Part shown: positions 3,401 through 55,984 of the stretch, piece after piece
Layout of the letters: every line of letters begins with the position of its first letter
Position numbering within the stretch: the first letter of the stretch is position 1
Assembly (NCBI GenBank): GCA_949152475.1
Contig: OX424570.1
Span: forward strand, 28,392,694-28,456,693
Reading direction: 5' to 3'
Source: Terebella lapidaria
Lineage: Eukaryota > Annelida > Polychaeta > Terebellida > Terebellidae
DNA: 64,000 bases
Made by a program: the position numbers and the translations under genes
The notes under the pieces: model-generated
The model's input: the letters and a program-made list of their open reading frames with translations, nothing else
What the model was told of the DNA's origin: nothing
Database searches by the model: none

Positions 3401-6400
3401 AGTGTACTCAACTCTAAATTACATGCAATACTTTTCAAGTACATTTAGTGGACCAATTTTCAAGATTCTACAGTGAAAATGTGCCCTGAATTCGAGCACA
3501 CATTTCATTGTATCGGTTGCTAGGAGACGAAGGAGAAGGTTCGGTTGCTGATCCAGCTTGCTGACAGTCTCGTGGACAAAGGACACATGCACGCCGCCGA
3601 GATCCGATCCTGGGTCGTCGCAGTCGACAAACGTTACAAGGACTTCTCGTCTCGCATGGAGAAATACCGCATCAAACTGGAGTCAACGCTCGGAGTCAAA
3701 CACGACACCGCAGTGTGTATCTATCCATGTGGGACGATACTTATACAGGGTGGGAAAGTCATGTGGGGATAGGTTATGAATCTGGCTACAAACAAACCTT
3801 TACATGAGCTATTCCACTCTGAACAACTCAGTGTGGATGGAGTTGCATGCATATACATTGTAATGCCTTAACATTATTTTCTTGCACCCAAATCAAACAA
3901 TATTGTCGGTTTACTGTTCTATATATGGGAATTTACCTTGTCTCGATGGACTCTTGAATGGACTGTTCTTATAGTTTCTGTTTGCAATGGTTACTGTTAT
4001 TATGGTTACTGTTGCTATGGTTGCTGTTGCTATGGCTACAGTTCCTATGGTTACTGTTGCTATGGTTACTGTTGCTATGGCTACAGTTCCTATGGTTACT
4101 GTTGCTGTGGTTCCTGTTATTATGGTCACTGTTGTTATGGTTACAGTCGGAGCCGGAGGAGAGCAGTAGGCAGAGTGACGCGAGTCTCGAGGAGAAGCTC
4201 CAGCAGACCGCCAAGGAGCTGACAGAGGAAAAGCGCAAGTCTGCTCGGCGGAAAGAGTACGTAAAAAACACAAACGCAAGAAATATCAATGTATGATGCC
4301 AGAATCTGTATTCTGGTATGCAGATGTTTGTATGTCAGTTGTGCAATGTTATTTATGTTTTGGGGAACACAAATATTATGTTGTATACAAATCATACAGA
4401 TCCCTAATGAGCAAATATCTGTGTACCTCAAGGTTCATCATGGCGGAGCTACTGCAGACTGAGAGAACTTACGTCGCCGATCTGGAAACTTGTCTCAAGG
4501 TGAGTGCAAAATACCTTTAGTGTCGATAGAGGATCGATAGAAATGTCTAAATGTCAGTGAAAATGTTTCAATGGCGATAAGGTATCTCAAGATCGAAAAA
4601 AATGTCTCAAGGCCGATAGAAACATTTCAAGGTCGTTAAAAATATCTCAATTTCAATAAAGATGTCTCGCGTTGTTAGAAATGTCTCAAGGTTGATAAAA
4701 ATGTCTCGAGGTCATTGTCTCAAGGCCCATAAAAACTTCTTGAGGTCCTTAGAAATGTCTCAAGGTCGATATAAAAATGTCTCAAGATCGATATAAAAAT
4801 GTCTCAAGGTCGAAATAAAAATTTCTCAAAGGCGTTAGAAATGTCTCAAGGGCCATATAAAAAATATCTAGAGGTCATTATAAATATCTTGAGGTTGATA
4901 TAAAAATGTCTTGAGGCTGGTAGAGAAGTCTCAAGATTGTTGGAAAAGTCATATCCTGATCATATGTCATAATATTATCTGTCATGTATTGGTTCAGTGT
5001 TGCAAAATTAGTGTCTGTTATTTTCTGATGAATAACTTCACCTGAAGCCAAGTTGAATAATGTTTGATAAAACTGATGATTGGTGTCAATGTTGTTGGCT
5101 TATCTCTATCATAAAGGATATCACACATGATCTGTCATGTTTTTAGGTTACCGGACCTTTGGTCCGATAACGTATTGGCATGGCGTTGCGTCCGTCCGTC
5201 CGTCCGTCCGTCCGTCCGTCCGTCCGGCGTTAACATTTTTATCTTTAAAGTTAACGATCGAATCTTTCTGAAATTTAGCACAAAAATGCCTAAAAATATT
5301 TTGAGAAGGAGGTATTTTTTTGTTTTTTGATTTTCGCATTTTTTTTCAAAATGGCGGCCGTTTTTGTCGAAAAACGCTCAATTTTGGACTTTGACGGCCA
5401 TTTTCTCATAAACTGTCTGATCAGTTTTGAGTTTTTGGTTTCAAAAGATTACCCTCATATACCTCTGTGATATGTATAAGTTTGGTTGCCCTAAATCTGC
5501 CGGTTTCCGTGTGGCGGCCATTTTGAATTTTTGGCGGGTCGGCGAAAAAAATTTTTTCGCCCCAAATCGCATTACTATCCATTTTGGACCATTTCTAGGG
5601 CAAAAAAAAATTTTCACCCTTTGAAAAAAATTTTGGACTTAGAAAATTTTCGGCACTTTTTCCCTTCATGATGGGAGCTGTCCGGACTGTACTCATAGAA
5701 CGCTTGAAGACAGAGCTTAGAAATTGGCACTTTCAAATGGGAAGTCATATATGGCGACTCGTGTGGTGACCTTGAATTTGACCTTGGATGACCTTGAAAG
5801 GTCAAAACAGCCATTTTTGGGTCGAAAAACGCTCAAATTTGCACCTGGTCTGTATTTTCTCAAAAACTCTCTGATCAGTTTTGAGATTTTTGCTTAAAAA
5901 GATTCCTCTTATATACGTCTGTGACGTGTATAAGTTTTGTTGCCCTTGAATCGCCGATCTCAGTGTGGCGGCCATTTTGAATTTTTGACGAGTCGGCGAA
6001 AAAAATTTTTTTTGCCCCAAATAACATTACTATCCATTTTGGGCCATTTCTAGGCAAAAAAAAATTTTCACCCTTTGAAAAAAATTTTGGACTTGGAAAA
6101 TTTTCGGCACTTTTTTCCTTCATAATGGGAGCTGTCAGGACTGTACTCATAGAACGCTTGAAGATAGAGCTTAGAAATTGGCACTTTCAAATGGGAAGTC
6201 ATATATGGCGACTTGTGTGGTGACCTTGAATTTGACCTTCAATGACCTTGAAAGGTCAAAACAGCCATTTTGGGGTCAAAAAATGCCCAGATTTGCCTCT
6301 ATAGATGAAATGCTTGCAGATAGAGCTCATGTTTGCATTATCATGATTATGAACATATAGGAAGACATATATGACACAACTAATGATGACCTTGAACTTG

Positions 6401-9400
6401 ACGTCAGATGACCTTGAGTGCCGAATGTCTGACTCGGAATGTGTAAATTGACCTGAGTGGCCTAAACTATTCCACCCAGATATATCTTTGTATTATGAAC
6501 ATATAGAATATCAAATGCCGCACACATACATGTAATGGTGACATCGAAGTTCACACGGATGACCTTGATTGGTAAATCTCAAGGTCTGTTACCTGTCAAT
6601 GCTGCCATGGCCAAACCAAAATTGTCCGGTAACCTATCTTAGCCTTTGGGCTAATTTTCTGTGTTACAGACTTATTACAACGAGATGGTCCACCCTAAGA
6701 GTTCCCCGCCAGCCGGTATTGCTGGAAAACACGATGTCATCTTTGGCAACCTGCAAGAAATATACAATTTCCACGATAAGTATGTACAAAGATAACTTCC
6801 CATATACATGAGTGCAATCAAAATCAAACCATGCACTTGTTCTCAGCGGATGAGATAATTATATCAAATTCAAACTAAAAGTTCAGCACAGATGTTTTAC
6901 GGATTCACACAAACATTGAATTTTTTGTTCTGTTTCCAATCATTGTTTCAATCACAATTATTTCCTGATGACAACCCTCCTACCCTCACAGAGTGTTCCT
7001 GAAGGAGTTGGAGAAGTACGAAGTATTACCTGAGGATGTTGGTCACTGTTTTGTCACGTGGGCCGAGCATTTCTCTATCTATGTCACATACTGCACAAAC
7101 AAACCAGAGTCTCAGAATCTCGTCGAACATCACAGTGCCTCGTTCTTCGAGGTAGGCGCTCAGCTTTGGTCTAAAACCTCAGCCAAATGGTAGTTAATGT
7201 GGAAAAGATCATAGAATTTATAAGTGTGACATCTTTGTGAAGATGTAATTTTTTTTTTTCATTTCAAAAAGACAAACCAACAAAATGATATTCAGTATTG
7301 AAATCTGATTATGTGTTCAATATATTTTGGTGTTAAAGTGAAAAACCCTACACAAATTCAATTTTTCTTGGCAATGTACCTGCACAGTGGTGATGTACTA
7401 TCTCCCAAACCACCCCCTATGTGTCACACTGCTCCATAAACCTTACAGGACGTACAGAAGCGGTACGACCTGAGCAGCTCTCTTCCCTCTTACCTGATCA
7501 AACCCGTACAGCGGATCACAAAGTATCAGCTGCTGCTCCGGGACTTGCTGGCGTGTTGTGAGGAGGGTCGTGGGGAACTCAAGGTACGTGCCCGGGGGCA
7601 AATGGGGGTCTGATCTTATGCCAAAAACACAAGAAATTTTGCTTTCGGTCGGTGAATAAATTTCCTTGAAATTTGGACCAAATTTCTGATGGCAGTTGTC
7701 TCTGATAAAATTTGTAGCTGGCTTCAATGATTAGTATGCTGAATACCTCTCTTCCTCCCTCTCCCCAGGATGGTCTCGACGTGATGCTGAACGTCCCCAA
7801 GAAAGCCAATGATGCCCTCCACCTGTCACTACTGGAGGGCTGTGATGTAAGTCACACGGACTTCCGTCGTCTGCTGTATAACAACCCGAAGAAACAGATC
7901 TTTGCATCAAAATTACATCAAAGATTTGTATCACCCAGATTCAAGGATAGACTTTTATCGTTATTATGGCTACTGTGTTTGTCCTGGTTGCAATGTTTGT
8001 TCTGACCTGGTTACCATGTTGGTTGCCCTGGTTACCATGTTTCTTGCCCTAGTTACTATGCTGTTGCCATGGTTACCATGTTGGTTGCCCTGGTTACCAT
8101 GTTCCTTGCCCTAGTTACTATGCTATTGCCATGGTTACCATGTTGGTTGCCCTGGTTACCATGTCATTGCCCTGGTTACCATGTTTCTTGCCCTAGTTAC
8201 TATGCTGTAGCCATTGTTACCATGTATGTGGCCCTAGTTACTATGCTTTTGCCATGGTTACCATGTCTGTGGCCCTAGTTACTATGCTGTTGCCATGGTT
8301 ACAGGAGGAGCCGACCGCTCTAGGGGAGGTGATCCTACAAGACACATTCACCGTGTGGGACCCGAAGCAGTTAATCAAGAAAGGCCGCGAGCGACACTTG
8401 TTCCTGTTTGAGGTGTGTCTGCTGTTCGCCAAGGAGACGAAGGAGAGCACCGGCAAGTCCAAGTACCTGTACAAGTCCAAGCTGCTGGTATGTACAACTC
8501 ACTGACAGAACACGCCGTTTGTCTGAAGTCCTGCTCGTTCGCTAGTCTCTGATGTTTTATGCCTGTTGTATTGCAGACGAACCAGATCGGTGTGACGGAG
8601 CACATAGAGGGTGACGAGTGCAAGTTTGCGCTATGGACTGGGACTGTAGCGCCGATCTCCGACTACAAGATCATCCTCCGGGTAGGTGGACTTCTAATGT
8701 CTGATGAGGTAGATTGCCCTGTTCATTTGCTTGCTCTGCCAAGCCTTTAGTCAAGTTGCTGATGCTTCTCTCTGTGTTTAGGCGTCGTCCCTGGAGACGA
8801 AGCAGGTTTGGGTGAAGCACCTTCGAGAGTTGATACAGGCGCGACTGATGTACATCAGCCCTGCCCTCAACGCATCTGTCAGCAAATCACAGCTCTTCAA
8901 ACCACCACCGCCCAAAATATTCAGTCAACAACGTGCAAGCAGGTCAGTGTCTTAATGACATCAGATGTCAGTGTCATCTCAGTGGTGTCAGATATCAGTG
9001 TCATCTCTAGTGTCCGATGTCAGTGTCGTGTCAATGATGCATTTCAGTCTCGTGTGTCAAATGTCAGTGTCATCTCAGTAGTGTCAGATATCATGCAGTG
9101 TCATGTGTCAAGTGTCTCAGTAATGTCAGTTGTCAGTAACTAGTCAGATGTCAGAAAAGTCATGTTTTTGGGTTTATACATCTGACAGTAGACCATTGAC
9201 AGTTTTAGTATTAGCAGAAACCCATTCTCTTATTGCTTTGTGGTGTTAGTCCTCAGTAGAGTCCAAATCAGTCAGTGCGTCATCAGCATTGATGAATATA
9301 GTTTGATGCAAGTCTGAGGTATCCCCTGCACATACAGACTCAGTATAAACCTCAGATACAGCTTTTGGTGCTGTATTTCAAGAGGCAGATGAGCAGTTTT

Positions 9401-12400
9401 CTACGTATATTGTTCTGAACAATGCCACTGCAGACTTTTCTCTAACTCTTCCCCATCACGTGCCTTGCTCACACACCCGCTTCAGCAGTTAACTTAAGTG
9501 CCCTGCTGGAATACTGCAGTTTTCTATGGGTGTATATTAACCCAGAAATGATACAACACGGAACATCCCGTGTGTGGAACTCTGCTGCCGCTCTCCGCTC
9601 TCCGAAACAACAATATCTGGGATCAGTCTACCACTGATACCCCCCCCCTCCCCACTCCCCCTGTCCCCACCACCCAGGAGTCAGTTATCAGCACCTCTGT
9701 CTCACTCACTAGTGTTTTATCAGCAAAATCTGCCTTTACTCTGAACTCATTCAAGTTTTATGCCTGAACTAATGTGAATGCTTCAAAGGATTCCTCTGAC
9801 TGGATGCTTCTCTCCGCATGTTCTGGATACAGAAAGTGAAAGGATCTGTCCGTCCAGGATAAAGACTGGAAAAACTACAACTTCCCTTCCTTGGAGATAA
9901 CCCCACAATCTCTCCCTTGTACCAATTATAAATTATTAGGCACTGATATCACATGTAGTGTCTGTGCATGGAGCATATGTATCCGAGTTCTGTGAGAGAT
10001 AATGGGGTGCACGGCATGGTTCAGTCTGTTTGTATCCATCATGCTCATGTGACGGAATGGAGGATATGTTGTGGCGAGGATTAGAAAATATCTGATATTG
10101 GTCAAATGATGCTAGCAAGAAAGCTCATGCAGAATTTGACGAATAACATGTCAATCTAGAGGCACATCACAGTTTGACAATTGTACAACCAGGGATGGCC
10201 TTGCTCGCATGGTTACAAAAACTATGTGGATCGATGATACTCTGGTTGCCATGGGGACCTGACAGTAGTTTATCATGGTCACCATGGCTACAGGATGTGT
10301 GGGGGGTGGCGGAGGACCTAGTGTATTATTTCCTGGCGTGTGCGGGGAGCATGGTACTTGTTAAAGTTCTCGTGGACACGGTCATCAGACTTGGCTTCTA
10401 CAGGTGCAGGCTCATGAGTGTGCACTAGCTGAACATTAAACAGTAGTTGTTGGAAATCCTGAAATGTAACCAAATATGTGGTCTCAGTAGGGAACTGTCT
10501 ACTAGCTCATTACAAATCCAATTGTGTCTAGAATCACCGCAATATTAATTTCTTTTATTTGATGATAATGTTGCTCATAAAAAGCTGCAAAACAATTTTT
10601 TGAAAGTGAATGAGTACTAGTATCAGTTTTGACTGTTACTATGCGAGGTTGCACATCACTAAGCCAGCTATGTTTGTTACAGAGAACTGGATGAGACAAT
10701 GTCGTTAGACGATATGTCACTGGACAGAATTCTGCCAGAGCGAGGCTCCATGACCTCTGTCAACTCAGCTGCTACGACCTGTACAACAGACTCCAGTGGC
10801 AGCGGCTGCTCATACACAGGCAACAAGGTCAGTACTTTACTGGGGTGTGTCCTGAACCACCGAATAGGGCAATACTTTACTTACTGGGGTGTGTCTTGAA
10901 CCACCGAATAGGGCAGTACTTTACTGGGTTGTGTCCTGAACCACCGAATAGGGCAGTACTTTACTGGGTGTGTCCTGAAATACCAAGTTAGGGCAGTACT
11001 TTACTGGGTTGTGTCCTGAGGTGCGTCCTGAACCACCGAATAGGGCAGTGCTTTACTGGGGTGTGTTCTGAACCACGGAATAGGGCAGTACTTTACTGGG
11101 GTGTGTCCTGAAATACCAAATTAGGGCAGTACTTTACTGGGGTGTGTCCTGAACCACCGAATAGGGCAGTACTTTACATACTAGGGTGTGTCCTGAAATA
11201 CCAAATAGGGCAGTACTTTACTGGGGTGTGTCCTGAACCACAGAATAGGGCAGTACTTTACTGGGTGTGTCCTGAAGTACCATATAGGGCAATACTTTAC
11301 TGGGTGTGTCCTGAAATACCAAATTAGGGCAGTACTTTACTGAATGTTTCCTGACCAACAGAATAGGGCAGTACTTTACTTACTGGGGTGTGTCCTGAAC
11401 CACCGAATAGGGCAGTACTTTACTGGGTGTGTCCTGAAATACCAAATAGGGCAGTACTTTACTGGGTTGTGTCTTGAACCACAGAATAGGGCAATACTTT
11501 ACTTACTGGGGTGTGTCCTGAACCACCGAATAGGGCAGTACTTTACTGGGTTGTGTCCTGAACCATCGAATAGGGCAGTACTTTACTTACTGGGGTGTGT
11601 CCTGAACCACCGAATAGGGCAGTACTTTACTGGGTTGTGTCCTGAACCATCGAATAGGGCAGTACTTTACTTACTGGGTTGTGTCCTGAACTACCGAATA
11701 GGGCAATACTTTACTGGGTTGTGTCCTGAACCACAGAATAGGGCAGTACTTTACTTACTGAACCATCAAATAGGGCAGAACTTCACTAAATTGTGTCCTG
11801 AACCACCGAATAGGGCAGTACTTTACTGGGTTGTATCCTGAACCACCGAATAGGGCAATACTTTACTGGAGTGTGTCCTGAACCACCGAATAGGGCAGTC
11901 CTTTACTGGGGTGTGTCCTGAAGCACAGAGTAGGGCAGTACTTTACTGGGTTGTGTCCTGAACCACAGAATAGGGCAGTACTTTACTTACTGGGGTGTGT
12001 CCTGAACCACCGAATAGGGCAGTACTTTACTGGGTTGTGTCCTGAACCACAAAATAGGGCAGTACTTTACTGGGTTGTGTCCTGAACCACAGAATAGGGC
12101 AGTACTTTACTGGGTTGTGTCCTGAACCACAGAATAGGGCAGTACTTTACTTACTGGGGTGTGTCCTGAACAACCGAATAGTTTTGCTTTACGTTGTCAT
12201 CGATATCACGGAAACTGTGCGGCTTAGAGCAGAACAGACATTGGACAGATAGTCTTTGGGGTATCAAGTTTGTCCTTCACATACATGTAATTGCATAAAT
12301 GTCTTATAGATCTCATTGGGAGCTTCGTCATGTTTTCCTGAGTCAGCTGTTTGTTCCTTTCATGCTTCACCCTGAAATGCCTCCAAGGCCTTTAGGCCTT

Positions 12401-15400: not shown

Positions 15401-18400
15401 GATCACATGAATGTCCACAGTCAGGACACAGCCAGGATACATGTATGTAATCAAAACACACTTGTTATACATCCAGCTAAGTGATTTATCCTGTATTGGG
15501 AACTGAGTAGGATTTTGTGATCATCTGGCCTGATTGGAGCTTGGCTTGCTGTGGAGGATTCTGATTGTTAACAGTCGCTGGAAGAAATGCCAAAATCCAT
15601 GAGATAAAGTATCAATTGGAAATATCAATTTGGGCATTGGTTTTGGGATATTTTTTCGGATACAAACACGGATACTGTTGTCATCTGGTGATCTGGAGGA
15701 AAGGCGACTCTAACCAGCAGACTGGGGAAGGTTCCCTGCGGCAGTCAGATCTGCCAGGTCACACGGAGATCGAGGTCACACGCCTCGCCCCTGATGGCCG
15801 CAGGACGGCCCCCGCCCGATGTTCTCCAACCCGTCCCTTGTTGTATTACTCTCTGTATCCAGACTGCTCCGCAAAACCATGGGCAAGACACGCAAGCGTA
15901 GAAAGTTCTTCAAGTTTTTCTCATGTCTCAGTCGCTCGGACGATGTGGAGGTCGTGGGTCTGTCGTCCCCCATCGCCTCCTCTACAGCACACACACATGA
16001 GGGGGACAGTGTTGCCCTGGCAACCACACAGGATGGCAACAATGGTGCCATGGCCACCACACAGGACGGCACTAGTATTGCCATGGCAACCAACCATGAA
16101 GGATCCCACCCATTGGGTCGAGCCGTGGACAACAATGCTCAGACTTGTGGTGAGTTAGAACCAGGATTGACAGTTGACACAGCACTGTTACAGTCTGACC
16201 ACCGCTTGGTGTCGCCCGAGAGCTCAGCTCACGGTCATGGGACGGTCTCCCCGCAAGTATCCATGTCGAGCTCTCCAGGCTCTGCCCTTCATGAGCCGCT
16301 CAGTGCACAGGTTTCCATGACGATAAGCCCAGCCCTTCATGAGCCACTCAGTGCCCAGGTTTCCACGACAACCAGCTGTCACGAGCCGCTCAGTGCCCAG
16401 GTTTCCACGACAACCAGCTGTCACGAGCCGCTCAGCGCACGAGTCTCTGCTACGTCGTCGGTTCCCGAACCTCACCTATCTGTTGACGACGACGGCAGCG
16501 TCGCGGAGCGTCACCAGCGTCCGTCGTGGAGGATCCGACATCGCTACCACTCACCCAGACAAGTGAGACAGGCCACCTGGTGGGGGGGGGAGTCAAATCG
16601 CTACCACTCGCCCAGATAAGTGAGACAGGCCACCTGGTGGGGGGGGGGGGGGTCAAATCGCTACCACTCGCCCAGACAAGTGAGACAGGCCACCTGATTC
16701 GGGAGGGGGGGGGGGGGTGGTCAGTTCGCTACTACTCGCCCAGACAAGTGAGACAGGCCACCTGGTGGGGGGGGGGGGGGGATCAGATCGCTACCACTCG
16801 CCCAGACAAGTGAGACAGGCCACCTGGTGGGGGGGGGGGGGGGTCAGATCGCTACCACTCGCCCTGACAAGTGAGACAGGCCACCTGGTGGTGGGGGGGG
16901 GGGGGGGGGTCAGATCGCTACCACTCGCCCAGACAAGTGAGACAGGCCACCTGGTGGGGGAGGGGGGTCAGATCGTTACCACTCGCCCAGACAAGTGAGA
17001 CAGGCGACCTGGTGAGGGGAGGATTAGATCGCTACGAATCGCCCAGACAAGTGAAACAGGACACCTGGTGGGGGGGGGGGTGGTCAGATCGCTACCACTC
17101 GTAAGTGAGACAGGCCACCTGGTGGGGGGAGGGGGTCAGATCGCTACCATTCGCCCAGACAAGTGAGACAGGCCACCTGGTGAGGGGAGGATTAGATCGC
17201 TACGAATCGCCCAGACAAGTGAGACAGGCCACCTGGTGGGGGTTGGGGGTCAGATCGCTACCACTCCCCCAGACAAGTGAGACAGGCCACCTGGTGGGGG
17301 GGGGGGGGGGATCAGATCGCTACCACTCGCCCAGATAAGTGAGACAGGCCACCTGGGGGGGGGGGGGGGGGTCAGATCGCTACCACTCCCCCAGACAAGT
17401 GAGACAGGCCACCTGGTGGGGGCGGGGTCAGATCGGTACCACTCGCCCAGACAAGTGAGACAGGCCACCTGATGGGGGGGGGGGGGTGTCAGATCGCTAT
17501 GAGACAGGCCACCTGGTGGGAGGGGTCAGATCGCTACCACTCGCCCAGACAAGTGAGACAGGCCACCTGGTGGGGGGGGGGGGGGTCAGATCGCTATCAC
17601 TCGCCCAGACAAGTGGGACAGGCCACCTGGTGGGGGGGGGGGTCAAATCATTACCACTCCCCCAGACAAGTGAGACAGGCCACCTGGTGGTGGGGGGGGG
17701 GGGGGTCCGATCGCTACCACTCGCCCAGACAAGTGAGACAGGCCACCTGGTGGGGGGGGGGGGGGGGGGTCAGATCACTATCACTCGCCCAGACAAGTGA
17801 GACAGGCCACCTGGTGGGGGGGGGGGGGGGGGTCAGTTCGTTACCAATCGCCCAGACAAGTGAGACAGGCCACCTGGTGGGGGGGGGGGGGGATCAGATC
17901 GCTACCACTCCCCCAGACAAGTGAGACAGGCCATCTGGTGGGGGGGGGGGGGGTCAGATCGCTACCACTCGCCCAGACAAGTGAGACAGGCCACCTGGTG
18001 GTGGGGGGGGGGGGGTCAGATCGATACCACTCCCCCAGACAAGTGAGACAGGCCACCTGGTGGTGGGAGGGGGTCAGTTCGCTACCAATCGCCCAGACAA
18101 GTGAGACAGGCCACCTGGTGGGGGGGGGGGGGGGATCAGATTGCTGCCACTCGCCCAGACAATTGAGACAGGCCACCTGGGGGGGGGGGGGTCAGATCGC
18201 TATGAGACAGGCCACCTGGTGGAGGGGTGGTCAGATCGCTACCACTCGCCCAGACAAGTGAGACAGGCCACCTTGTGGGAGGGGTCAGATCGCTACCACT
18301 CGCCCAGACAAGTGAGACAGGCCACCTGATGGGGAGGGGGGGGGGGGGCAGATCGCTACCACTCGCCCCGACAAGTGAGACAGGCCACCTGGTGGGGGGG

Positions 18401-21400
18401 GGGTGTCAGATCGCTACCACTCGCCGAGACAAGTGAGACAGGCCACCTGGTGGGGGGGGGGGGTCAGATCGCTACCAATCGCCCAGACAAGTGAGACAGG
18501 CGACCTGGTGGGCTGGGGGGTCAGATCGCTACCACTCGCCCAGACAAGTGAGACAGGCCACCTGGTGGGGACGGGGTCAGATCGGTACCACTCGCCCAGA
18601 CAAGTGAGACAGGCCACCTGGTGGGGGGGGGGGGGGAGGTGTCAGATCGCTACCACTCGCCCAGACAAGTGAGACAGGCGACCTGGTGACGGGGGGGGGG
18701 GGGGGGGGGTTAGAGTGTTTACACAGTTACCATGGTTACTGGAAGTTATACAAGGTCAAGGTCATTCTATATGTTTTGTTAATAGTTTTACAGATACATG
18801 TAGTATGGATTAGCGATTGTCATCCTGAATCCGCCACTGCATCTGTTGACTTTCTTGAGAAATCTGGACAGGTCACATTTCTCAATGAATTTTAATAGTA
18901 CATGTATTTTGTATGCACATAATGATGAAACTGATGACAACAAGGTAGAACATCCAAATTGACTGTGGTAATCTGTGATAATTACATGAAGAAACAGATA
19001 TTTATCGATGAAGTCAAAGCTCATATCAGGCCAGAAGCTTTTGTTCAACAGAGACAACTTATAAACAGTTTGGAAATGATGACAATATTAAATTTTAGCA
19101 TCCAAAAACAAAAAATCTATTTTTTGAAACATTCATTCATGGATCTGATGAAAGATATGGTGACAGGGATGATGGGGCTTCTGGGAGATACACCCGTATG
19201 GTCATCAGTGACCGGGGTTGTCCAGTTCAAGTATGCTGGTGACCGTGACTATACTGACCTTGAATATACACTTATTGTGCAGTGAACAATACTGTGTGGT
19301 CTGCAGGACCATTGATCCTAATGTGCTGACCATGTCAAGGGTTTAGTCATGAGATGTTGCACCGGCAGTATGGTTCTATGGGTACACCAGCCTCATATAC
19401 CAGCCCAAAAACTGTGGTCTGTGGTCCGGTCCCTGTCACTCTCCCGAAATCTCTGGCTTCTCTGGCAGTTGGGCTCGCCTCTCCTGCTTTTTGTAGTTCA
19501 ACACAATTTGATCTTTGCCAAGCTAACAATCGTCGGCAGTCTATGTCCTATCTGTTGGCACAGTTCCGAAGGGAATCGTTGAGATTTTTGTGAGGTTACT
19601 TGTGTGTGGAGTTCAGTATTTATCTTGTTTATTGCTGCTAGACTTGTACTAGATATATTGAGTAAGCTACAGCATAATGGAAATACAACTTGTCCTAATA
19701 AAACAGAACCAGTGTGGTATACTGTACAGGCACTAGGAGAGGACAGAGGGGGGTGGGCTAGAGCTATTACTGAGGCTTGCTGGTTGATTTCTAGTAATAA
19801 GCAGCATGAGTAATGAGGCCTCATCAAATACTGAAACATGCCCAGTTCCTGTTAGTCCGGTGGGGAGGGGGGGGGGGGGTCTAGTATACATGGAGGTGGT
19901 GTTTTGATGACATTTCTGTTGTGTATACGGATTGGGAATACATGCAAGATGGCTTTACATTGTTGGCGTTTGACCACAGAGACGTTGTTGTTGGGAGTGT
20001 AGAGTAGTGACTGGAGTTCGTGAGTTTGGTGTTGTCTGGACTGAGCTTGTTGAGTTATTGTTGTCTGCGCTCTCGTAATCATGGCGGAGGAGTTGTGGGC
20101 TTATATAATGAAGTCGACGGGAGTTCAAAGCGTAAGTTCAGGCTCGGAATGTCGAGAGTGCTCGAGTTCTGTAGTCATTCCTGACTCTGTAAGCAGTATG
20201 ACAACACAAGAAATTACTGCTGTGACTAACTGCAAACTAGCATGTACCAGTCTAGTGTGTAAGAAATTCACACAAGAATGTGTGGATTCGTGCATTCTAA
20301 AGATACAGATCATAGCTGTGGCTGATATACATGTATTCTGATTTAATGCTGCATGCGTCACAGAAATGTAACTTTCTGGGTCACTGAACACAATTATTTA
20401 TCGGCTTACGGTATCTGCTGATATACGATGTACAACAAGTTTGGAATATTTCAGGGTAATCTTGTCTTGCAAGTGAATGAATTGGAGGAACATTTTGGTA
20501 TAAAAAAATTTGTTAAAAATATTCTTCAGCAGCTTTCTCATTCCACTTTGTTATTTTTTCCTATCAGAATTTACACGTATCATAAATAATTGATGACCAA
20601 TTTACATATATGTCTTTGTGTTTTGATCCGATTCCAGTAGTGAAAATTTGTCCCACATATTTGCTACAAAAAGTCTGCCTGAACATGGAGTCATTTAACA
20701 TGATTAATGCCACGAATGTCAGTGCAGTCACAGAATGAGTCTGTATTTTACAGACTGTGGCTATTTAGTACCTTCGGTCTTGTATTTCTTGTGGGTGTTG
20801 ATATTTTACAGACTGTGGATATTTAATACCTTCCATCCCGTATTTCTAGCGAGTGTTGATATTTTGCAGACTGTCGATATTTAGTGCCTTCCATCCTGTA
20901 TTTCCAGTGGGCATCGATATTTTAAAGACTGCATATTTAGTACCTTTCATCCTGTATTTCTAGCGAGTGTTGATATTTCGCAGACTGTCGATATTTAGTA
21001 CCTTCCGTCCTGTATTTCTAGCGAGTGTTGATATTTTACAGGCTGTAGACATTTAGTACCTTTCATCCTGTATTTCTAGCGAGTGTTGATATTTCACAGC
21101 CTGTGGTTATTTTGTACCATGTGTCCTGTATTTCTAGTGGTCATCGAAATTCTACAAACTGTGGATATTTAGTACCTTCCTTCCTGTATTTCTAGTGGGT
21201 ATCGATATTTTACAGACTGGATATTTAGTACCTTTCGTCCTAAATTTATAGTGGGCATCAATATTTTACAGACTGTGGGTATTTAGTACCTTTCATCCTG
21301 TATTTCTAGTGGGCATTGATATTTTACAGACTGTGGATATTTAGTACCTTCCATGCTCTATTTCTAGTGGGCATCGATATTTTACAGACTGTGGCTATTT

Positions 21401-24400
21401 AGTACCTTCCATCCTGTATTTCTAGTGGGCATCAATATTTTACAGACTGTGGATATTTAGTACCTTCCATCCTCTATTTGTAGTGGGCATTGATATTTTA
21501 CTGACTGTGGATATTTAGTACCTTCCGTCCTCTATTTGTAGTGGGCATTGATATTTTTACTGACTGTGGATATTTAGTACCTTTCATCCTGTATTTCTAG
21601 CGAGTGTTGATATTTCACAGAATGTGGTTATTTAGTACCTTCCGTCCTGTATTTCTAGTGGGCATCGATATTTTACAGACTGTGGCTATTTAGTACCTTC
21701 CGTCCTGTATTTCTAGTGGGCATCGATATTTTACAGACTGTGGATATTTAGTACCTTCCGTCCTCTATTTGTAGTGGGCATTGATATTTTTACTGACTGT
21801 GGATATTTAGTACCTTTCATCCTGTATTTCTAGCGAGTGTTCCACAGACTGTGGTTATTTAGTACCTTCCATCCTGTATTTCTAGTGGGCATCGATATTT
21901 TACAGACTGTGGAAATTTAGTACCTTCCGTACTGTATTTCTAGTGGGCATCGATATTTTACAGACTGTGGAAATTTAGTACCTTCCGTACTGTATTTCTA
22001 GTGGGCATCGATATTTTACAAACTGTGGATATTTAGTACCTTCCGTACTGTATTTCTAGTGGGCATCGATATTTTACAAACTGTGGATATTTAGTATTTT
22101 CCGTCCTATATTTCTAGTGGGCATCGATATTTTACAGACTGTGGAAATTTAGTACCTTCCGTACTGTATTTCTAGTGGGCATCGATATTTTACAGACTGT
22201 GGAAATTTAGTACCTTCCGTACTGTATTTCTAGTGGGCATCGATATTTTACAGACTGTGGAAATTTAGTACCTTCCGTCCTATATTTCTAGTGGGCATCG
22301 ATATTTTACAGACTGTGGAAATTTAGTACCTTCCGTACTGTATTTCTAGTGGGCATCGATATTTTACAAACTGTGGATATTTAGTATTTTCCGTCCTATA
22401 TTTCTAGTGGGCATCGATATTTTACAGACTGTGGAAATTTAGTACCTTCCGTACTGTATTTCTAGTGGGCATCGATATTTTACAGACTGTGGAAATTTAG
22501 TACCTTCCGTACTGTATTTCTAGTGGGCATCGATATTTTACAGACTGTGGAAATTTAGTACCTTCCGTACTGTATTTCTAGTGGGCATCGATATTTTACA
22601 AACTGTGGATATTTAGTATTTTCCGTCCTATATTTCTAGTGGGCATCGATATTTTACAGACTGTGGAAATTTAGTACCTTCCGTACTGTATTTCTAGTGG
22701 GCATCGATATTTTACAGACTGTGGAAATTTAGTACCTTCCGTACTGTATTTCTAGTGGGCATCGATATTTTACAGACTGTGGAAATTTAGTACCTTCCGT
22801 ACTGTATTTCTAGTGGGCATCGATATTTTACAAACTGTGGATATTTAGTATTTTCCGTCCTATATTTCTAGTGGGCATCGATATTTTACAGACTGTGGAA
22901 ATTTAGTACCTTCCGTACTGTATTTCTAGTGGGCATCGATATTTTACAGACTGTGGAAATTTAGTACCTTCCGTACTGTATTTCTAGTGGGCATCGATAT
23001 TTTACAGACTGTGGAAATTTAGTACCTTCCGTACTGTATTTCTAGTGGGCATCGATATTTTACAGACTGTGGAAATTTAGTACCTTCCGTACTGTATTTC
23101 TAGTGGGCATCGATATTTTACAAACTGTGGATATTTAGTATTTTCCGTCCTATATTTCTAGTGGGCATCGATATTTTACAGACTGTGGAAATTTAGTACC
23201 TTCCGTACTGTATTTCTAGTGGGCATCGATATTTTACAGACTGTGGAAATTTAGTACCTTCCGTACTGTATTTCTAGTGGGCATCGATATTTTACAGACT
23301 GTGGAAATTTAGTACCTTCCGTACTGTATTTCTAGTGGGCATCGATATTTTACAAACTGTGGATATTTAGTATTTTCCGTCCTATATTTTTAGTGGGCAT
23401 CGATATTTTACAGACTGTGGAAATTTAGTACCTTCCGTACTGTATTTCTAGTGGGCATCGATATTTTACAGACTGTGGAAATTTAGTACCTTCCGTACTG
23501 TATTTCTAGTGGGCATCGATATTTTACAGACTGTGGAAATTTAGTACCTTCCGTACTGTATTTCTAGTGGGCATCGATATTTTACAAACTGTGGATATTT
23601 AGTATTTTCCGTCCTATATTTCTAGTGGGCATCGATATTTTACAGACTGTGGAAATTTAGTATTTTCCGTCCTATATTTCTAGTGGGCATCGATATTTTA
23701 CAGACTGTGGAAATTTAGTACCTTCCGTACTGTATTTCTAGTGGGCATCGATATTTTACAGACTGTGGAAATTTAGTACCTTCCGTACTGTATTTCTAGT
23801 GGGCATCGATATTTTACAGACTGTGGAAATTTAGTACCTTCCGTACTGTATTTCTAGTGGGCATCGATATTTTACAGACTGTGGAAATTTAGTACCTTCC
23901 GTACTGTATTTCTAGTGGGCATCGATATTTTACAAACTGTGGATATTTAGTATTTTCCGTCCTATATTTCTAGTGGGCATCGATATTTTACAGACTGTGG
24001 AAATTTAGTACCTTCCGTACTGTATTTCTAGTGGGCATCGATATTTTACAGACTGTGGAAATTTAGTACCTTCCGTACTGTATTTCTAGTGGGCATCGAT
24101 ATTTTACAGACTGTGGAAATTTAGTACCTTCCGTACTGTATTTCTAGTGGGCATCGATATTTTACAAACTGTGGATATTTAGTATTTTCCGTCCTATATT
24201 TCTAGTGGGCATCGATATTTTACAGACTGTGGAAATTTAGTACCTTCCGTACTGTATTTCTAGTGGGCATCGATATTTTACAGACTGTGGAAATTTAGTA
24301 CCTTCCGTACTGTATTTCTAGTGGGCATCGATATTTTACAGACTGTGGAAATTTAGTACCTTCCGTACTGTATTTCTAGTGGGCATCGATATTTTACAGA

Positions 24401-27400
24401 CTGTGGAAATTTAGTATTTTCCGTCCTATATTTCTAGTGGGCATCAATATTTTACAGACTGTGGGTATTCAGTATCTTTCGTCCTTTATTTCTAGTGGGC
24501 ATCGATGTTTTACAGACTGTGGATATTTAGTACCTTCCGTCCTGTATATATTGTGGGCATCGATATTTCACACACTGTGGATATTTAGTACCTTAAATCC
24601 TGTATTTCTAGTCCGGTGTTGATATTTTACAGACTGTGGGTATTTCATACTTTCCGTCTTGTATTTCTAGCAAGTGTTGATATTTCACAGACTGTGGCTA
24701 TTTAGTACCTTTCGTCCTGTATTTCTACATGTTCTAGTGGACATCGATTTTTTACAGACTGTGGATATTTAGTACCTTCTGTCCTCTATTTCTAGTGGGC
24801 ATTGATATTTTACAGACTGTGGATGTTTAGTACCTTCCATCTTGTATTTCTAGTGGCCGTTGATATTTTACAGACTGTGGATAGACAAGAGACACCTCCG
24901 TTGGCACAACCAGAAGATCTCCACGTTGAGGTACAACTCAACCTCACAACATCGTAGTTCTGTTGTACAAAATTCCTGTCTACTATTCCTGCCCAGATAT
25001 ATTTTGATTCTGTCATCTTGGTCCATCGGGATCATACTCATTACCTCCCACACGATATTCACTACTCCAATATGTGTTAGTGATGTACTTTCACTGTTCC
25101 GCCAAAACCCATAGTTATATATATTTACATGTACGTCTGCGTATCCTCACTGGTTTCTTCGTCTGATTGTTGTGTACAATGTCAGACACATAGTTTATAT
25201 ATATTTACATGTACGTCTGCGTATCCTCACTGGTTTCTTCGTCTGATTGTTGTGTACAATGTCAGACACATAGTTATATATATTTACATGTACGTCTGCG
25301 TATCCTCACTGGTTTCTTCGTCTGATTGTTGTGTACAATGTCAGACACATAGTTATATATATTTACATGTACGTCTGCGTATCCTCACTGGTTTCTTCGT
25401 CTGATTGTTGTGTACAATGTCAGACCCATAGTTATATATATTTACATGTACGTCTGCGTATCCTCACTGGTTTCTTCGTCTGATTGTTGTGTACAATGTC
25501 AGACACATAGTTTATATATATTTACATGTACGTCTGCGTATCCTCACTGGTTTCTTCGTCTGATTGTTGTGTACAATGTCAGACTGGACGTAGTACGCAG
25601 CTCGAGGTCTGTAAGTCTCCCTGTGTATTTTGTTACCTGCCTGTTTCACTTCCCTTTTCAGTTATGCATCAAGAATTTTATTTAGTTTCTCTGAACCTCT
25701 GTGTGTGTTATTCTTCCATATATATCTGCACCACATTACTGTACCAAAAATCAGGCCCATTACCACTGTGTACCCATCTCCACCAATGTTCACCGTCAGT
25801 TACTACTAATGTCTAAAGTAACATGTTAATACCGTGCCCACAGGAGCAGTTGGAGGCCGAGTCGGCATCACACACAGAGGCAGCGCCACTGGACCACGCA
25901 CTGCCGGACCACGCCCCCGTGCCGGACGAGACGGATGACGACATCGCCCCCGTCGAGATGCCGCCTCCCATGAAACAACTCAACCTGCAACAGCCGCCCC
26001 CGCCCGCAGCTGAGGAGGTAACTATGGCGATTGTGCCTCCACATTCAAGGGGGCTCACAATCTATCGAGAATTTGTTGAATCTATCATCAATCACATCGT
26101 TACCTGTTTGACATTATTGTAAAAAAAATCAAGAATGTTGCTCAGTATGTAAAAGTTAAGTACACTACTACAAGCTCTCTGTGTTTGCTTACAGGCTCCC
26201 TCGGACACTTCCAGTCAGGCTGCTCTTACACAACAACTCGAGACTATCGTCAAACAACGTATCGGCTCGGTAAGTACACCTCCACACTCAACCGTGTACT
26301 CACTTAGTGACGTCAGCCTGCCAGCTAGATCTATCATAATATAATGAATGGTTGTGACCTGGGTACCTTGCTGCCATGGCAACTGAAGGTGTGTGTATAT
26401 TGTTCTCTACTGAAGTGTTACTGTTGCCATGGTTACAGGAACCTGAGGGTGGCGGTACGGGGGAAGAGGGTGGTGAGGGCGATGGGCGACAGACGCTGCG
26501 ACCCGAGGCGTCAGTGGACGGCGACGTGACGGACGGACCGCGGCAAGAGGATCAGATGTCCGAACAGGAGGCCAACCGTGAAAAATACCGCCGCAAACGC
26601 GAGTGAGTAGACTAGAAGACACTGTGTTCTACTTTAGGATGATTGTCAAGTTTAGAGGCTTAGTGTGTTACATTGATATTGGTTTGTTAATCAAGCCCCA
26701 TCAAGAGTGTTGAAGTCATACAATATGTAGGACTGGAATTGTTTGTTTTTTGCAGATTTGTGATAACTGAGCTGATCGAGACTGAGAGAGATTACGTCCG
26801 AGATCTGGGACTCATCGTCGAGGTCAGTAACCATGACAACAGGACAGCTGTCCAACCTGTCGCTTGTGCATAGAGATAAAATGTACATGTCAAGCTGGAG
26901 AAATATAGACAAAACATGTAAATTAAGAAACATATATCAGTTGAGCAAATGGAAACATATTCATCGAAAATTTTATGAATGAACTGACTGATATCTCATC
27001 AAAAATAACCATTGCACATATACATGTACATATGTCTATGGGCCAATGGACTCATTGAATGAATGAAATACTCAACATACCTTCACCTGATGTGTGTCTG
27101 TTTGCCAAAGCTGCTCAATGCTGGGTACTTGTAGTGGTGTCAGTTTCAGATCGGCATGTTTGTGTTTTATGCAGGGTTACATGCAGATGATTCAGGACAA
27201 TGGGCACCCGATGCCAGAGGGGATGGAGGGCAAAGACAAAATCGTCTTCGGCAACATTCACCAGATCTACGACTGGCACAGAGAGTGAGTTGTCATGGTT
27301 ACATGTGGGAATGAGCGGTAGTGTGTTGTTCTGATACGTACTCAGGGAACATTTTACTTTCTAGCAGATGCATAGCAATTGCTTGGAAAATAATGCTATG

Positions 27401-30400: not shown

Positions 30401-33400
30401 AACACAGGAGCTACGGCGAGAATTAGGTCACAAACTTCAGCTGCCAGACCTATTAATCAAACCAGTTCAGCGGATAATGAAATATCAACTCTTGCTAAAG
30501 GTTAGTATTCTAACATCGATACATCCATCTCTTGTATAGCGATGTGTTGCCAGTACACGTAAACCATACACGTATGAGAAGTGTCGATGTAATGTTGTTA
30601 CTGGCTAATCACTGTTTCCTTGCTTGCTGTCTCCCCTGCAGGATATCCTGAAGCACACTGACCGGATGGGAGATGACACGAAGGAGCTACAACAAGCCGT
30701 ACAAGTCATGTGTGTCGTACCGAAGGCTGCCAACGACATGATGAACGTCGGCCGACTACAGGGATTCGATGTGAGTAGATTGATAGAGTAGGAGCGGTCC
30801 ACCCAGTGTCAAAGGCATCTTTTGTTGGCTGGATGAGCTGTACACATGGTAAAGATTGGAGCAATCTATCTACTGAGAACCTGTGCCTGTATTAGACCAT
30901 ATTTCCCCACGTGTTTTAGGGTAAGATCACGGCCCAGGGGAACCTGCTGCTGCAGGAGACGCTGATGGTGATGGAAGTCGCGCCCAAGTCCCAGAAACCC
31001 GAGCAGGCCAAGTACAAGGAGCGTCGAGTCTTCCTCTTCGACCAGATCATCATCTTTAGCGAGGAGATCGAGAAGAAGAAAAACAACCTCTCAAACCCCG
31101 GCTACATCTACAAAAACAGCCTCATGGTTTGTAGGATCACTTGTACTTCTACAAAAATTAGTCCAAGGGCTAAGAAAGGTTACCGGACAATATATATTTT
31201 AGATATCAGTATTTTGTCCCGTGACCTTGAAAATAAGGTCATTGGTCAATTCAAGGACTCGATAATATTCGGCATATGTCATTTCTAGTATGTCCACAAT
31301 TGATTTGCTAAGCTGTAAAGTCAATAATAAGCGAGATATTAGCCAAATGTCCTGTGACCTTGAAAATGAGGTCAAAGGTCGAATTCAAGGTCATAGCAAT
31401 AATCAGCGTATATCATCTCCTATATGTTCATAATTGATTCCTAAGCTGTAAAGTCAATAATAAGCGAGCTATTAGCCATTTTGTCCTCTGACCTTGAAAA
31501 CTAGGTCAAAGGTGAAGTTCAAGGTCATGACAATTTTCAGAATATATCATTTTCTATATGCCCACAATTGATTGCTAAGCTGTAAAGTCGATGAAAAGCG
31601 AGATATTAGCCATTTCGTTCTCTGACCTTGAAAATGAAGTCAAAGGTCAAATTCAAGGTCATAGCAATATTCAGCATATATCAATTCCTATATGTTCATA
31701 ATTGATTCTTGAGCTGTAAAGTCGATAATAAGCGAGGTATTAGCCATTTTGTCCTGCGACCTTGAAAATGAGGTCAAAGGTCAAGTTCAAGGTCATGACA
31801 AAGTTCAGAATATATCATTTTCTATATGCTCACAGTTGATTGCTAAGCTGTAAAGTCGATGAAAAGCTAGATATTATCCATTTTGTCCTTTGATCCTGAA
31901 AATGAGGTCAACGGTCAAATTTAATGTCATGGCAATAATCTGCATATATCATTTCCTATATGTCCACAATTGATTCCTAAGCTGTAAAGTCAATAATAAC
32001 TGTGATATTAGCCATTTTGTGCTCTGACCTTGAAACTGAGGTCAGAGGTCAAATTCAAGGTTACGATAATATTCAGCATATATCATTTCCTATATGACCA
32101 CAATTGATCCCTAAGCTGTGAAATTGATAATATGTGAGATATTAGCCATTTTGTCCTGTGACCTTGAAAATGAGGTCAAAGGTCAAAATCAACGTCATCA
32201 GAATATTTGGCATATATCATTTCCTGTATGTCCACAATTGATTCCTAAGCTGTAAATTCGATAATAAGCGCGATATTAGACAGTTTGTATTCTGACCTTG
32301 AAACCGAGGTCAGAGGTCGAATTCAAGGTCACGAGATATTCAGCGTATATCCATTCCTTTATGTCCACAGTTAATTCCTAAGCTGTAAAATCGATAATAA
32401 GTGAGATATCAGCCATTTTGTTCTGTGACCTTGAAAATGAGGTCAAAGGTCAAATTCAAGGTCATCAGAATATTCGGCATATATCATTTACTATATGTCC
32501 ACAATTGATTCTCAAGCTGTAAAGTCGATAATAAGTGAGATATTAGCCATTTTGTCCTGTGACCTTGGAAATGAGGTCAAAGGTCAAATTCAAGGTCATC
32601 AGAATATTCGGCATATATCATTTCCTATATGTCCACAATTGATTCTCAAGGTGTAAAGTCGATAATAAGCGAGATATTAGACATTTTGTGCTTTGACATT
32701 GAACCCGAGGTCAGAGGTCAAAATCAAGGTCACGAAAATAATCAGCATATATCATTTCCTTTATGTCCACAATTGATCTCTAAGCTGTAAAATCGATAAT
32801 AAGTGAGATATTAGCCATTTTGTTCTGTGACCTTGAAAATGAGGTCAAAGGTCATTAGACAGTTTGTATTCTGACCTTGACAGTTTGTATTCACCCATTC
32901 AAGGTCATCGGAATATTCGGCATATATCATTTCCTATATGTCCACAATTGATTCCTAAGCTGTAAAGTCGATAATAAGCGAGATATTAGCCATTTTGTGC
33001 TCTGACCTAAACCGAGGTCAGAGGTCAACCTCAAGGTCAAAAAAATTTCCGCCTATATATTTTCCTATATGTCCACAATTGATTCCTGGTCTCTAATCTC
33101 AATATTAAGTGAGATATTAGGCTTAATGTGTCCCATTGTAAAGCATAGAAGAATTTACCATGGGAAAGTCCCATTTGGACTGTGTTTGGGCCCAAATTGG
33201 CCCACTTTGAGCGATTCAAGGGCAACGGAATTTATACATGTCACAGGGGTACATATGAGGAGTGTTTTTCATCAATAAGAAAAAAAGTTACTGAACAGAT
33301 TTTGAGTAAAGGACCGTCAAACTCCAAAATTGGCCATTTTTCGACTAAAATGGCCGCCTTGACCTTGAAACCGAGGTCAGAGGTCAAATTCAAGGTCACG

Positions 33401-36640: not shown

Positions 36641-36829
36641 TTCAGTCATGTAAGACAGGTGCCAAGAGCATCAGATGTTAAAGTTCTAGGTCGCCAAAAC
36701 TGGTGCAATGCATGCTATCCCATTCGTTCATTCATACAATTTTAAGCTGTACCTTAACCGTTTTGATGACAAAACATTCAATTCATTTGTGGAATGATTT
36801 GCTGTATGTATGCAAAGAGACTACACGGA

Positions 36830-37107
36830 TTTCATTCCCTCATAAAATCACTTTATTCGTCACAGGAATGAACACATTTACTCGACCAGCAACAATGAAC
36901 AGTGATAGCGAATTGAATTGACCACACTGGTCCTAATCGAGCCAGTCTATCCAAATATAGCATTTTTGTGGAGGAAAATGTATTCCTCTCAGCTTTAATA
37001 CAGTATCTATACGGATACAATGTAGTTGTTTGGAGAAAAATGCCATTCATTCAATCGTCAGAGACTTCCTGATGTGAAAACCTCCAGCAATGTCCAACAT
37101 ATCACAC
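36830..37107 (-). other. EZH2: EZH2 3' UTR
   Basis: Minus-strand AATAAA lies at 36852-36857, about 250 bp past the stop codon. The two convergent genes therefore leave roughly 200 bp between their transcript ends. Confidence 0.6.
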
Positions 37108-52986
<15,879 letters not shown>

Positions 52987-55905: not shown

Positions 55906-55984
55906 AAGAATCACCGACCTTTATTTTTTCTATTTGAGTGCTTGTAAATACATTGACCCAACTGATTTTTCCAGCCTAACTGAA

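What the first reader, a model, noticed from the sequence alone, without database searches (positions are those of the whole stretch)
4433..52522. Splice boundaries as seeds of tandem arrays in both genes
Eight 5' splice sites start tandem arrays whose units match the boundary: trio exons 8, 15, 16, alternative exon 15879 and 27; EZH2 exons 2, 5 and 13. Three 3' splice sites (trio exons 7, 13, 17) end arrays in the same way. In five of the donor cases the unit clearly includes exon nucleotides before GT. Units differ entirely in sequence between loci (21 to 82 bp), so this is not one mobile family. A shared process seems needed, such as repair or replication slippage at spliced or R-loop-forming borders, or selection for redundant splice signals. 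Tandem duplication of AGGT-containing exon ends has been proposed as a route to intron gain, but long arrays at so many borders of two neighbouring genes would be a distinct phenomenon.
Basis: partly seen in the sequence, partly recalled or inferred. Interest (0 to 1): 0.9.

Follow-up and report, generated by a model that had tools for sequence, protein, structure and literature searches.

The report
Splice-border tandem arrays near chromosome ends
Near the chromosome ends of a worm-like animal, short stretches spanning the end of an exon and its splice signal have been copied head to tail up to about 157 times, a known oddity of lancelet genes turning up in another phylum, and a natural test of how cells choose the right splice site.

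Summary
Rebuilt gene models (TRIO plus strand, EZH2 minus strand) show arrays at 10 of the 11 borders named; TRIO exon 15 is not above chance. In six the unit clearly carries exon bases (EZH2 exon 13: 71 exonic + 11 intronic, ~65 copies). It recurs outside the window: five more donors in the 40 kb upstream, and four donors plus one acceptor in a MYO1D gene near another chromosome end (up to 157 copies). Of 32 locus-specific arrays in three genes, 18 sit at a splice border; a generous random-seeding model expects 6.7 (P=7e-8), or 8.4 after GC weighting. Dispersed arrays, three of them inside inverted-repeat elements, are never at borders (0 of 10). It is not seen genome-wide: the window is subtelomeric; CLTC, XPO1 and 29 RhoGEF loci are nearly array-free. 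The structure matches lancelet "mirages", but the animal is annelid-like. Most likely ordinary subtelomeric minisatellite turnover is tolerated at donors because the exon-proximal donor still works, and persists because the exon keeps a selected master copy. Donor columns lean towards extra conservation (8 of 12 arrays, P=0.05), so a part for selection is not excluded. The cause of the excess is open.

The parts
3962..4146 (+). 15-bp array (~12 copies) running into the acceptor of TRIO exon 7 (exon starts 4147); unit shares only intronic ...GGTTACAG, no exon bases
4488..4911 (+). degenerate 20-22-bp array after TRIO exon 8 donor (4499); unit core TGTCTCAAGGT includes exon end
   Evidence: exonic 12 nt P=0.007
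8006..8304 (+). 41/62/82-bp array running into the acceptor of TRIO exon 13 (8305); no exon bases in unit; weakest of the accepted borders (P=0.030)
8961..9162 (+). short degenerate arrays after TRIO exon 15 donor (8942); not shown to be a border array
   Evidence: P=0.19
10824..12181 (+). 40-bp array (~33 copies) from TRIO exon 16 donor (10827); GT absent from 32 of 32 decoy copies
15879..16562 (+). inferred alternative exon of TRIO (open from ATG, phase 0 into exon 17)
   Evidence: inference, no RNA
16540..18714 (+). ~58-bp array from the alternative exon donor (16562), 23 exonic nt in unit; GT kept in 33 of 35 decoy copies
20744..24883 (+). 58-bp array (71 copies, 4.1 kb) ending 10 nt inside TRIO exon 17 (24874-24930); AG kept in 56 of 71 copies
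30920..31126 (+). TRIO exon 27; its last ~24 nt plus GTTTGTAGGATC is the unit found again at 33901-34042
   Evidence: 24/24 identity
31178..33899 (+). element with terminal inverted repeat GGTTACCGGAC/GGTCCGGTAACC, carrying a 134-bp array, lying between exon 27 and the rest of its border array
33901..34042 (+). 34/41-bp array of exon 27 end + donor (3.6 copies), displaced by the element
40788..46084 (-).
48653..49402 (-).
52136..52310 (-).
2094..3374 (+). inverted-repeat element carrying a 215-bp array in TRIO intron 5 (dispersed family, not at a border)
5146..6634 (+). inverted-repeat element carrying a 454-bp array in TRIO intron 8 (dispersed family, not at a border)

Best explanation
These are 'mirage'-type minisatellites: tandem duplications of short segments that straddle an exon/intron border, expanded by the usual minisatellite processes (slippage, unequal exchange) in a subtelomeric zone where such turnover is high. 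A duplication across a 5' splice site leaves the exon and its own donor intact, so the transcript can still be spliced at the exon-proximal donor while further copies lie in the intron as silent decoys; a duplication inside an exon is removed by selection. Because the exon end and its donor are kept by selection, a border array always has one unspoiled master copy and can re-expand, whereas interior arrays decay and drop out. SHOWN: border-straddling units; excess over a seeding null in the window, in the upstream half of the same gene (local arrays) and in a second subtelomeric gene; array richness near chromosome ends among the stretches sampled; more donors than acceptors. INFERRED: slippage/unequal exchange as the engine, use of the exon-proximal donor in RNA, and the master-copy reason for the excess.
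For: Units spanning borders with exon bases. 18 of 32 local arrays at borders in three genes against 6.7 expected (P=7e-8); independent of the window 10 of 16 against 3.9 (P=3e-5); 8.4 expected after GC weighting, P=8e-6. Arrays of >=12 copies are at borders in 11 of 13 cases, smaller ones in 7 of 19 (P=0.012), as a kept master copy predicts. Dispersed arrays 0 of 10 at borders. Donors 14, acceptors 4 (p=0.03): donor copies fall behind the authentic site, acceptor copies in front of it. The exonic part of the EZH2 array shows no clear coding constraint in the 42 units examined (normalised N/S 0.71). The same structure is described in lancelet globin, Adh3, TnC and PGBD5 genes, with regular splicing reported (passages).
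Against: No RNA: decoys as strong as the authentic donor (EZH2 array 61 of 62 within 1 bit; MYO1D 155 of 156 identical CAT|GTGAGT) might be used. Donor columns lean towards extra conservation (8 of 12 arrays, P=0.05; in the 157-copy MYO1D array no other window is as conserved), which passive decoys do not predict. The master-copy idea rests on a size difference at P=0.012 and is post hoc. Two arrays abut a donor without exon bases (TRIO 16, upstream 15202). The upstream 40 kb over all 16 arrays is not significant against the seeding null (5 against 3.5, P=0.22). One interior gene (C15 myosin) has a two-copy 20-bp repeat overlapping its exon end and donor. A stretch 0.85 Mb from a chromosome end and the C15 myosin locus also reach 19-20% arrays, mainly from dispersed families. 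Only two chromosome ends were read at gene level.
Confidence: 0.56

Rival explanations
1. A border-specific mutational process: tandem duplications arise preferentially at transcribed 5' splice sites (R-loops, transcription-replication conflict, or slippage between AGGT-like microhomologies), so arrays are seeded there more often than elsewhere.
For: Excess at borders survives a unit-length null and GC weighting up to threefold (P=0.0017); donors outnumber acceptors 14 to 4.
Against: Genes away from chromosome ends with many introns, e.g. CLTC (17 introns modelled), lack arrays at the standard score, so any such process would have to act mainly near chromosome ends; no direct sign of R-loops or of a shared breakpoint motif was tested.
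Confidence: 0.22
2. Selection for redundancy or regulation: extra donor copies protect or tune splicing, so border arrays are kept.
For: Leaving out the authentic copy, GT is kept in 350 of 363 copies over 11 donor arrays and the donor hexamer is above the mean of other windows in 8 of 12 arrays (P=0.05; mean mid-rank 0.33 where 0.5 is expected); in MYO1D's 157-copy array 156 of 156 keep GT and no other window is as conserved.
Against: The lean is P=0.10 without TRIO 16 (7 of 11); the two longest-exon-part arrays do not show it (EZH2 13: 0.971 against 0.975) and MYO1D donors 664 and 16447 are below the mean; TRIO 16 copies have GG instead of GT in 32 of 32; reading past the authentic donor meets an in-frame stop after 2-53 codons at 6 of 7 donors, so decoy use would mostly be harmful.
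Confidence: 0.11
3. Chance plus ascertainment: introns full of arrays in a subtelomere will have some that touch exons, and the reader chose the striking ones.
Against: The upstream half of TRIO restricted to local arrays (5 of 9, P=0.02) and MYO1D (5 of 7, P=5e-4), neither chosen for arrays, show it; dispersed arrays 0 of 10.
Confidence: 0.08
4. Mobile arrays: transposons carrying internal tandem repeats insert at borders.
For: The genome has such elements (GGTTACCGGACC inverted repeats around 134-, 215- and 454-bp arrays, three in the window).
Against: None of the 10 dispersed arrays is at a border; the EZH2 unit occurs only at its locus (65 of 65 matches); no border array has a match elsewhere in held sequence except the displaced exon-27 one, whose match is exon 27 itself.
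Confidence: 0.03

Closest known systems
Lancelet 'mirages' (minisatellite-like tandem duplications of exon/intron boundaries; globin BflGb6/BflGb9, Adh3, TnC, PGBD5)
   Same: Unit spans an exon/intron border; unit differs from gene to gene; both 5' and 3' borders; many copies retain splice signals (passages of PMC3087553 and PMC3902484).
   Different: Reported there in cephalochordates; here in an annelid-like animal, up to ~157 copies (MYO1D) against 6 and 3 in the two BflGb6 haplotypes, several per gene, and near chromosome ends. Chromosomal position of the lancelet cases was not looked up.
Human subtelomeric VNTRs
   Same: Tandem repeats concentrated near chromosome ends (abstract of PMC7608644: VNTRs of GC >60% and unit >15 bp 21-fold enriched within 5 Mb of ends).
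   Different: The abstract and section list, all that I saw, state no splice-border excess; local arrays here average GC 0.47.
Intron gain by tandem duplication of proto-splice sites
   Same: Duplicates a segment containing a splice signal (passages of PMC2891723; Figure 7 model in PMC3087553).
   Different: Here the duplicated signals lie inside existing introns; no new intron was shown and intron positions were not compared with orthologues.

Membership tests
Mirage (exon/intron border minisatellite) | Tandem repeat unit straddles an exon/intron border | tested here: met
   array edge 5-75 nt inside the exon at EZH2 (3 donors), TRIO alt and 17, upstream TRIO (4 donors), MYO1D (4 donors, 1 acceptor); exon 27 by sequence match
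Mirage (exon/intron border minisatellite) | Occurs at both 5' and 3' borders | tested here: met
   14 donors, 4 acceptors (two of the acceptor arrays, TRIO 7 and 13, only abut)
Mirage (exon/intron border minisatellite) | Unit sequence private to the locus | tested here: met
   EZH2 unit 65 of 65 genome matches at the locus; other units only against held sequence; the genome search with the exon-17 unit did not complete
Mirage (exon/intron border minisatellite) | Normal mRNA despite extra splice signals | not testable with these tools
   no RNA of this animal is held
Mirage (exon/intron border minisatellite) | Length polymorphism or somatic instability | not testable with these tools
   one assembly only
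Mirage (exon/intron border minisatellite) | Reported host range: cephalochordates | tested here: not met
   best CLTC match Paralvinella palmiformis 90%, Branchiostoma lanceolatum 82%; EZH2 groups with annelid Ridgeia and two unnamed rows (98/93). A range, not a structural criterion
Subtelomeric VNTR | Concentrated near chromosome ends | tested here: met
   18-53% in seven stretches within 0.4 Mb of ends, 0.8-11% in four random interior stretches; one search gives contig lengths
Transposon-borne satellite | Copies at many loci, bounded by inverted repeats | tested here: not met
   dispersed copies seen for 10 arrays (inverted repeats shown for three), none at a border; not met by the border arrays
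Intron gain by tandem duplication | New intron position created | not tested
   intron positions were not compared with orthologues

The most novel reading that the evidence does not exclude
In subtelomeric genes, 5' splice sites are hotspots of array birth: a process tied to transcription or splicing (R-loop, paused polymerase or repair at the exon/intron border) seeds tandem duplications there, and the spliceosome ignores up to ~157 nearly identical donors in a single intron by strict preference for the exon-proximal one. Mirages would then be a general animal phenomenon tied to chromosome ends, with independent origins in lancelets and annelids.
Probability: 0.25. Interest if true: 0.85.

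Novelty: new member of a known kind. Interest (0 to 1): 0.62.

Why it matters
It appears to extend a curiosity known from a handful of lancelet genes to another phylum: ten literature searches (two of them with the word annelid) listed no annelid report of border-straddling arrays, in a library that holds open-licence papers only. It adds a measured excess over a seeding null, a donor bias and a link to chromosome ends, and supplies natural constructs with 20 to 157 nearly identical donors behind one exon, a direct test of how the first donor is chosen. It also suggests that automatic gene prediction and short-read assembly may stumble at such introns (inference).

Tried and rejected
Amphioxus as the source: suspected from the likeness to mirages, rejected by the EZH2 tree and CLTC matches.

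Seed-null caution: naive placement of whole arrays gives P about 1e-17 to 1e-25, but long units are bound to touch borders of short introns, so I used a null in which one unit is dropped at random on the array-collapsed intron; the excess shrinks to about 2.7-fold.

I raised that rival's odds a little and lowered the best explanation's for this reason.

Reading frames past the donor: one search used a wrong phase for TRIO exons 8, 16 and 27; one search replaces those three (stops after 6, 23 and 53 codons). Its EZH2 and alternative-exon values stand.

Coding constraint in EZH2 array copies: none clear (42 units; its anchors span the splice site, so its splice-site conservation figures are biased and are not used).

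Pfam hits in subtelomeric stretch L035 came from a 107-bp array matched in several frames and were rejected as artefacts. Pfam on the TRIO middle region found no SH3 domain.

Controls are thin: CLTC, XPO1 (no exon model built), one C15 myosin and 29 RhoGEF loci of ~3.2 kb (29 of the 50 other matches; some overlap, one on a small unplaced contig) whose exon borders were not modelled. Of 20 subtelomeric and 20 interior stretches drawn at random, four and four were read; the four subtelomeric ones were picked by me from the list.
Full report
WHAT WAS CHECKED. TRF finds 59 repeat rows in the window, 26 merged arrays of period >=10, 22.2 kb or 34.6% of the window. I rebuilt both genes with recalled human proteins as tblastn probes and a GT/AG junction search. 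TRIO's 27 joined exons read with no stop and so do EZH2's 17 exons, so the borders are firm; PDB EZH2 and EZH1 chains match part of EZH2. Middle TRIO exons 16-20 rest on open reading and splice signals rather than on homology.

ANATOMY. EZH2: 30-bp unit with 6 exonic nt, 35-bp unit with 24 exonic nt, and 82-bp unit with 71 exonic plus 11 intronic nt in ~65 copies over 5.3 kb. TRIO: alternative exon donor (~58 bp, 23 exonic nt), exon 17 acceptor (58 bp, 71 copies, 10 exonic nt), exon 16 donor (40 bp, no exon bases beyond AG), exon 7 and 13 acceptors (the arrays run into ...GGTTACAG, no exon bases), exon 8 donor (degenerate) and exon 27, whose copies at 33901-34042 match the exon end 24 of 24 but are parted from it by a 2.7-kb element with inverted terminal repeats. 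Exon 15 is not above chance (P=0.19) and exon 13 only just (P=0.030). Leaving the authentic copy out, GT is kept in 350 of 363 copies over 11 donor arrays of three genes and in 0 of 32 at TRIO exon 16 (one further donor array had too few copies and two upstream ones were not examined). At acceptors AG is kept in 56 of 71 (exon 17), 3 of 12 (exon 7) and 0 of 7 (exon 13) copies.

REPLICATION OUTSIDE THE WINDOW. The window is C17:28392694-28456693 of a 761.6-Mb assembly; C17 is 28,561,639 long, so the window ends 105 kb from the end of its contig. A myosin-family search gave one gene within 0.4 Mb of a chromosome end, a MYO1D relative at C6:374-392 kb; of 12 introns modelled, four donors and one acceptor carry arrays, one with 157 copies of 44 bp, 156 of 156 anchored copies with GT in place and 155 identical CAT|GTGAGT.

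STATISTICS. Null 1 places whole arrays at random in their intron; null 2 drops one repeat unit at random on the intron with arrays collapsed. Window plus upstream: 36 arrays in 63 introns, 13 at a border; expected 0.54 (null 1) and 7.2 (null 2, P=0.006); window alone 8 of 20 (3.7 expected, P=0.01); upstream alone, all 16 arrays, 5 against 3.5, P=0.22. Splitting by whether the unit matches other held sequence: local arrays 13 of 25 (5.2 expected, P=2e-5); dispersed 0 of 11, one of the 11 being the exon-27 array, which matches exon 27 itself, hence 0 of 10. MYO1D: 5 of 7 (1.5 expected, P=5e-4); two arrays upstream of its first modelled exon were left out. Three genes: 18 of 32 local arrays (6.7 expected, P=7e-8); without the window 10 of 16 (3.9 expected, P=3e-5); donors 14, acceptors 4, p=0.03 (one MYO1D exon end was off by one base there, without effect on the class). 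Borders are GC-richer than introns and so are arrays; weighting for that raises the expectation to 8.4 (P=8e-6), an arbitrary threefold weight to 11.2 (P=0.002). Arrays of 12 or more copies lie at borders in 11 of 13 cases, smaller ones in 7 of 19 (P=0.012).

WHERE IN THE GENOME. Array fraction: seven stretches within 0.4 Mb of chromosome ends 18-53% (three of them the window, its upstream neighbour and the MYO1D locus; four drawn at random); C17 at 0.85 Mb from the end 20% (a dispersed family); four random interior 10-kb stretches 11.1, 1.1, 1.8 and 0.8%; a myosin on C15, 6.4 Mb from the end, 18.6%, of which 1.6 of 2.0 kb is the dispersed 134-bp family. 29 RhoGEF loci other than TRIO hold 13 short arrays, 611 bp in 96 kb, none above 3.6 copies. 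CLTC has none at the standard score; at a lower score four weak ones, three of them inside the 17 modelled introns and none within 60 bp of a border. XPO1's locus has none even at the lower score. Against me: the C15 myosin has a two-copy 20-bp repeat across its exon end and donor.

WHICH ANIMAL. The likeness to lancelet mirages made me expect amphioxus; the data say annelid-like. CLTC's best match is Paralvinella palmiformis (90%), Branchiostoma lanceolatum 82%; EZH2's best-scoring match is a chiton, 62% over 92% of the query, but its tree groups it with annelid Ridgeia and two unnamed rows (98/93).

HOW IT LIKELY WORKS. Tandem duplication across a donor leaves exon and authentic donor intact and puts the copies behind it; across an acceptor the copies come to lie in front of it, where a scanning spliceosome meets them first, which may explain why donors prevail (inference). 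The exonic part of the EZH2 copies shows no clear coding constraint. Reading past the authentic donor meets an in-frame stop after 2-53 codons at 6 of 7 donors tested; EZH2 exon 2 stays open through the three copies tested, in steps of 10 residues. Donor hexamers of decoys are somewhat better conserved than other windows: above their mean in 8 of 12 arrays, P=0.05, most plainly in the 157-copy MYO1D array and the TRIO alternative exon, not in EZH2 exon 13; so a part for selection is open. The excess over random seeding remains to be explained: a selected master copy at the exon (my preference), border-specific seeding, or selection.

KNOWN OR NEW. Passages read in PMC3087553 and PMC3902484 describe this structure in lancelet globin, Adh3, TnC and PGBD5 genes, with regular splicing reported or inferred; PMC3087553 cites Canestro et al. 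2002 for the name (reference seen; paper not held). The abstract of PMC7608644 reports VNTR enrichment in human subtelomeres. Passages of PMC12783039 describe minisatellites in the first intron of earthworm metallothionein genes and exon-4 duplications not seen in transcripts; border-straddling units are not mentioned in them. No annelid case was listed in ten searches of the open-licence library. I therefore call it a new member of a known kind, with new facts: another phylum, position near chromosome ends, copy numbers up to ~157, and a measured excess.

Noticed in passing
window 4135-4146, 8290-8304, 26424-26438; L051 reverse strand, before the MYO1D exon that ends at the 63-bp array: Four acceptors end in the same ...CATGGTTACAG or TATGGTTACAG motif (RFX/X-box-like palindrome GTTGCCATGG by recall); a recurring short element doubling as a 3' splice site.
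   Followed up: partly
window 2094-3374, 5146-6634, 31178-33899; 134-bp family also in the upstream 40 kb and at the C15 myosin locus: Elements with inverted terminal repeats GGTTACCGGACC...(G/T)GTCCGGTAACC carrying 134-, 215- or 454-bp tandem arrays; one lies inside the exon 27 border array. The inverted repeat was searched for in the window only.
   Followed up: partly
window 15879-16562: Possible alternative first exon of TRIO starting [18 protein letters not shown], phase 0 into exon 17, which would give a GEF2-only isoform; contains coding repeats at 15992-16092 and 16289-16435.
   Followed up: partly
window 52136-52310 (minus strand): EZH2 first border array is in frame and open; decoy use would insert 10-residue steps ([10 protein letters not shown]) after RRADEVK.
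   Followed up: no
window 37500-39187: 30/60-bp array of near-palindromic ACCAGTCT...AAGACTGGT units in the last EZH2 intron, not at a border.
   Followed up: no
assembly contigs such as C150, C186, C363, C235: Small contigs with kinase or myosin domains read through in-frame TAA and TAG with no TGA in these four: look like ciliate-type contamination or symbionts.
   Followed up: no
window 13869-14068: 200-N assembly gap within TRIO intron 16.
   Followed up: no
window 55358-56614: Open frames resembling fragments of a LINE (by eye, no search run).
   Followed up: no
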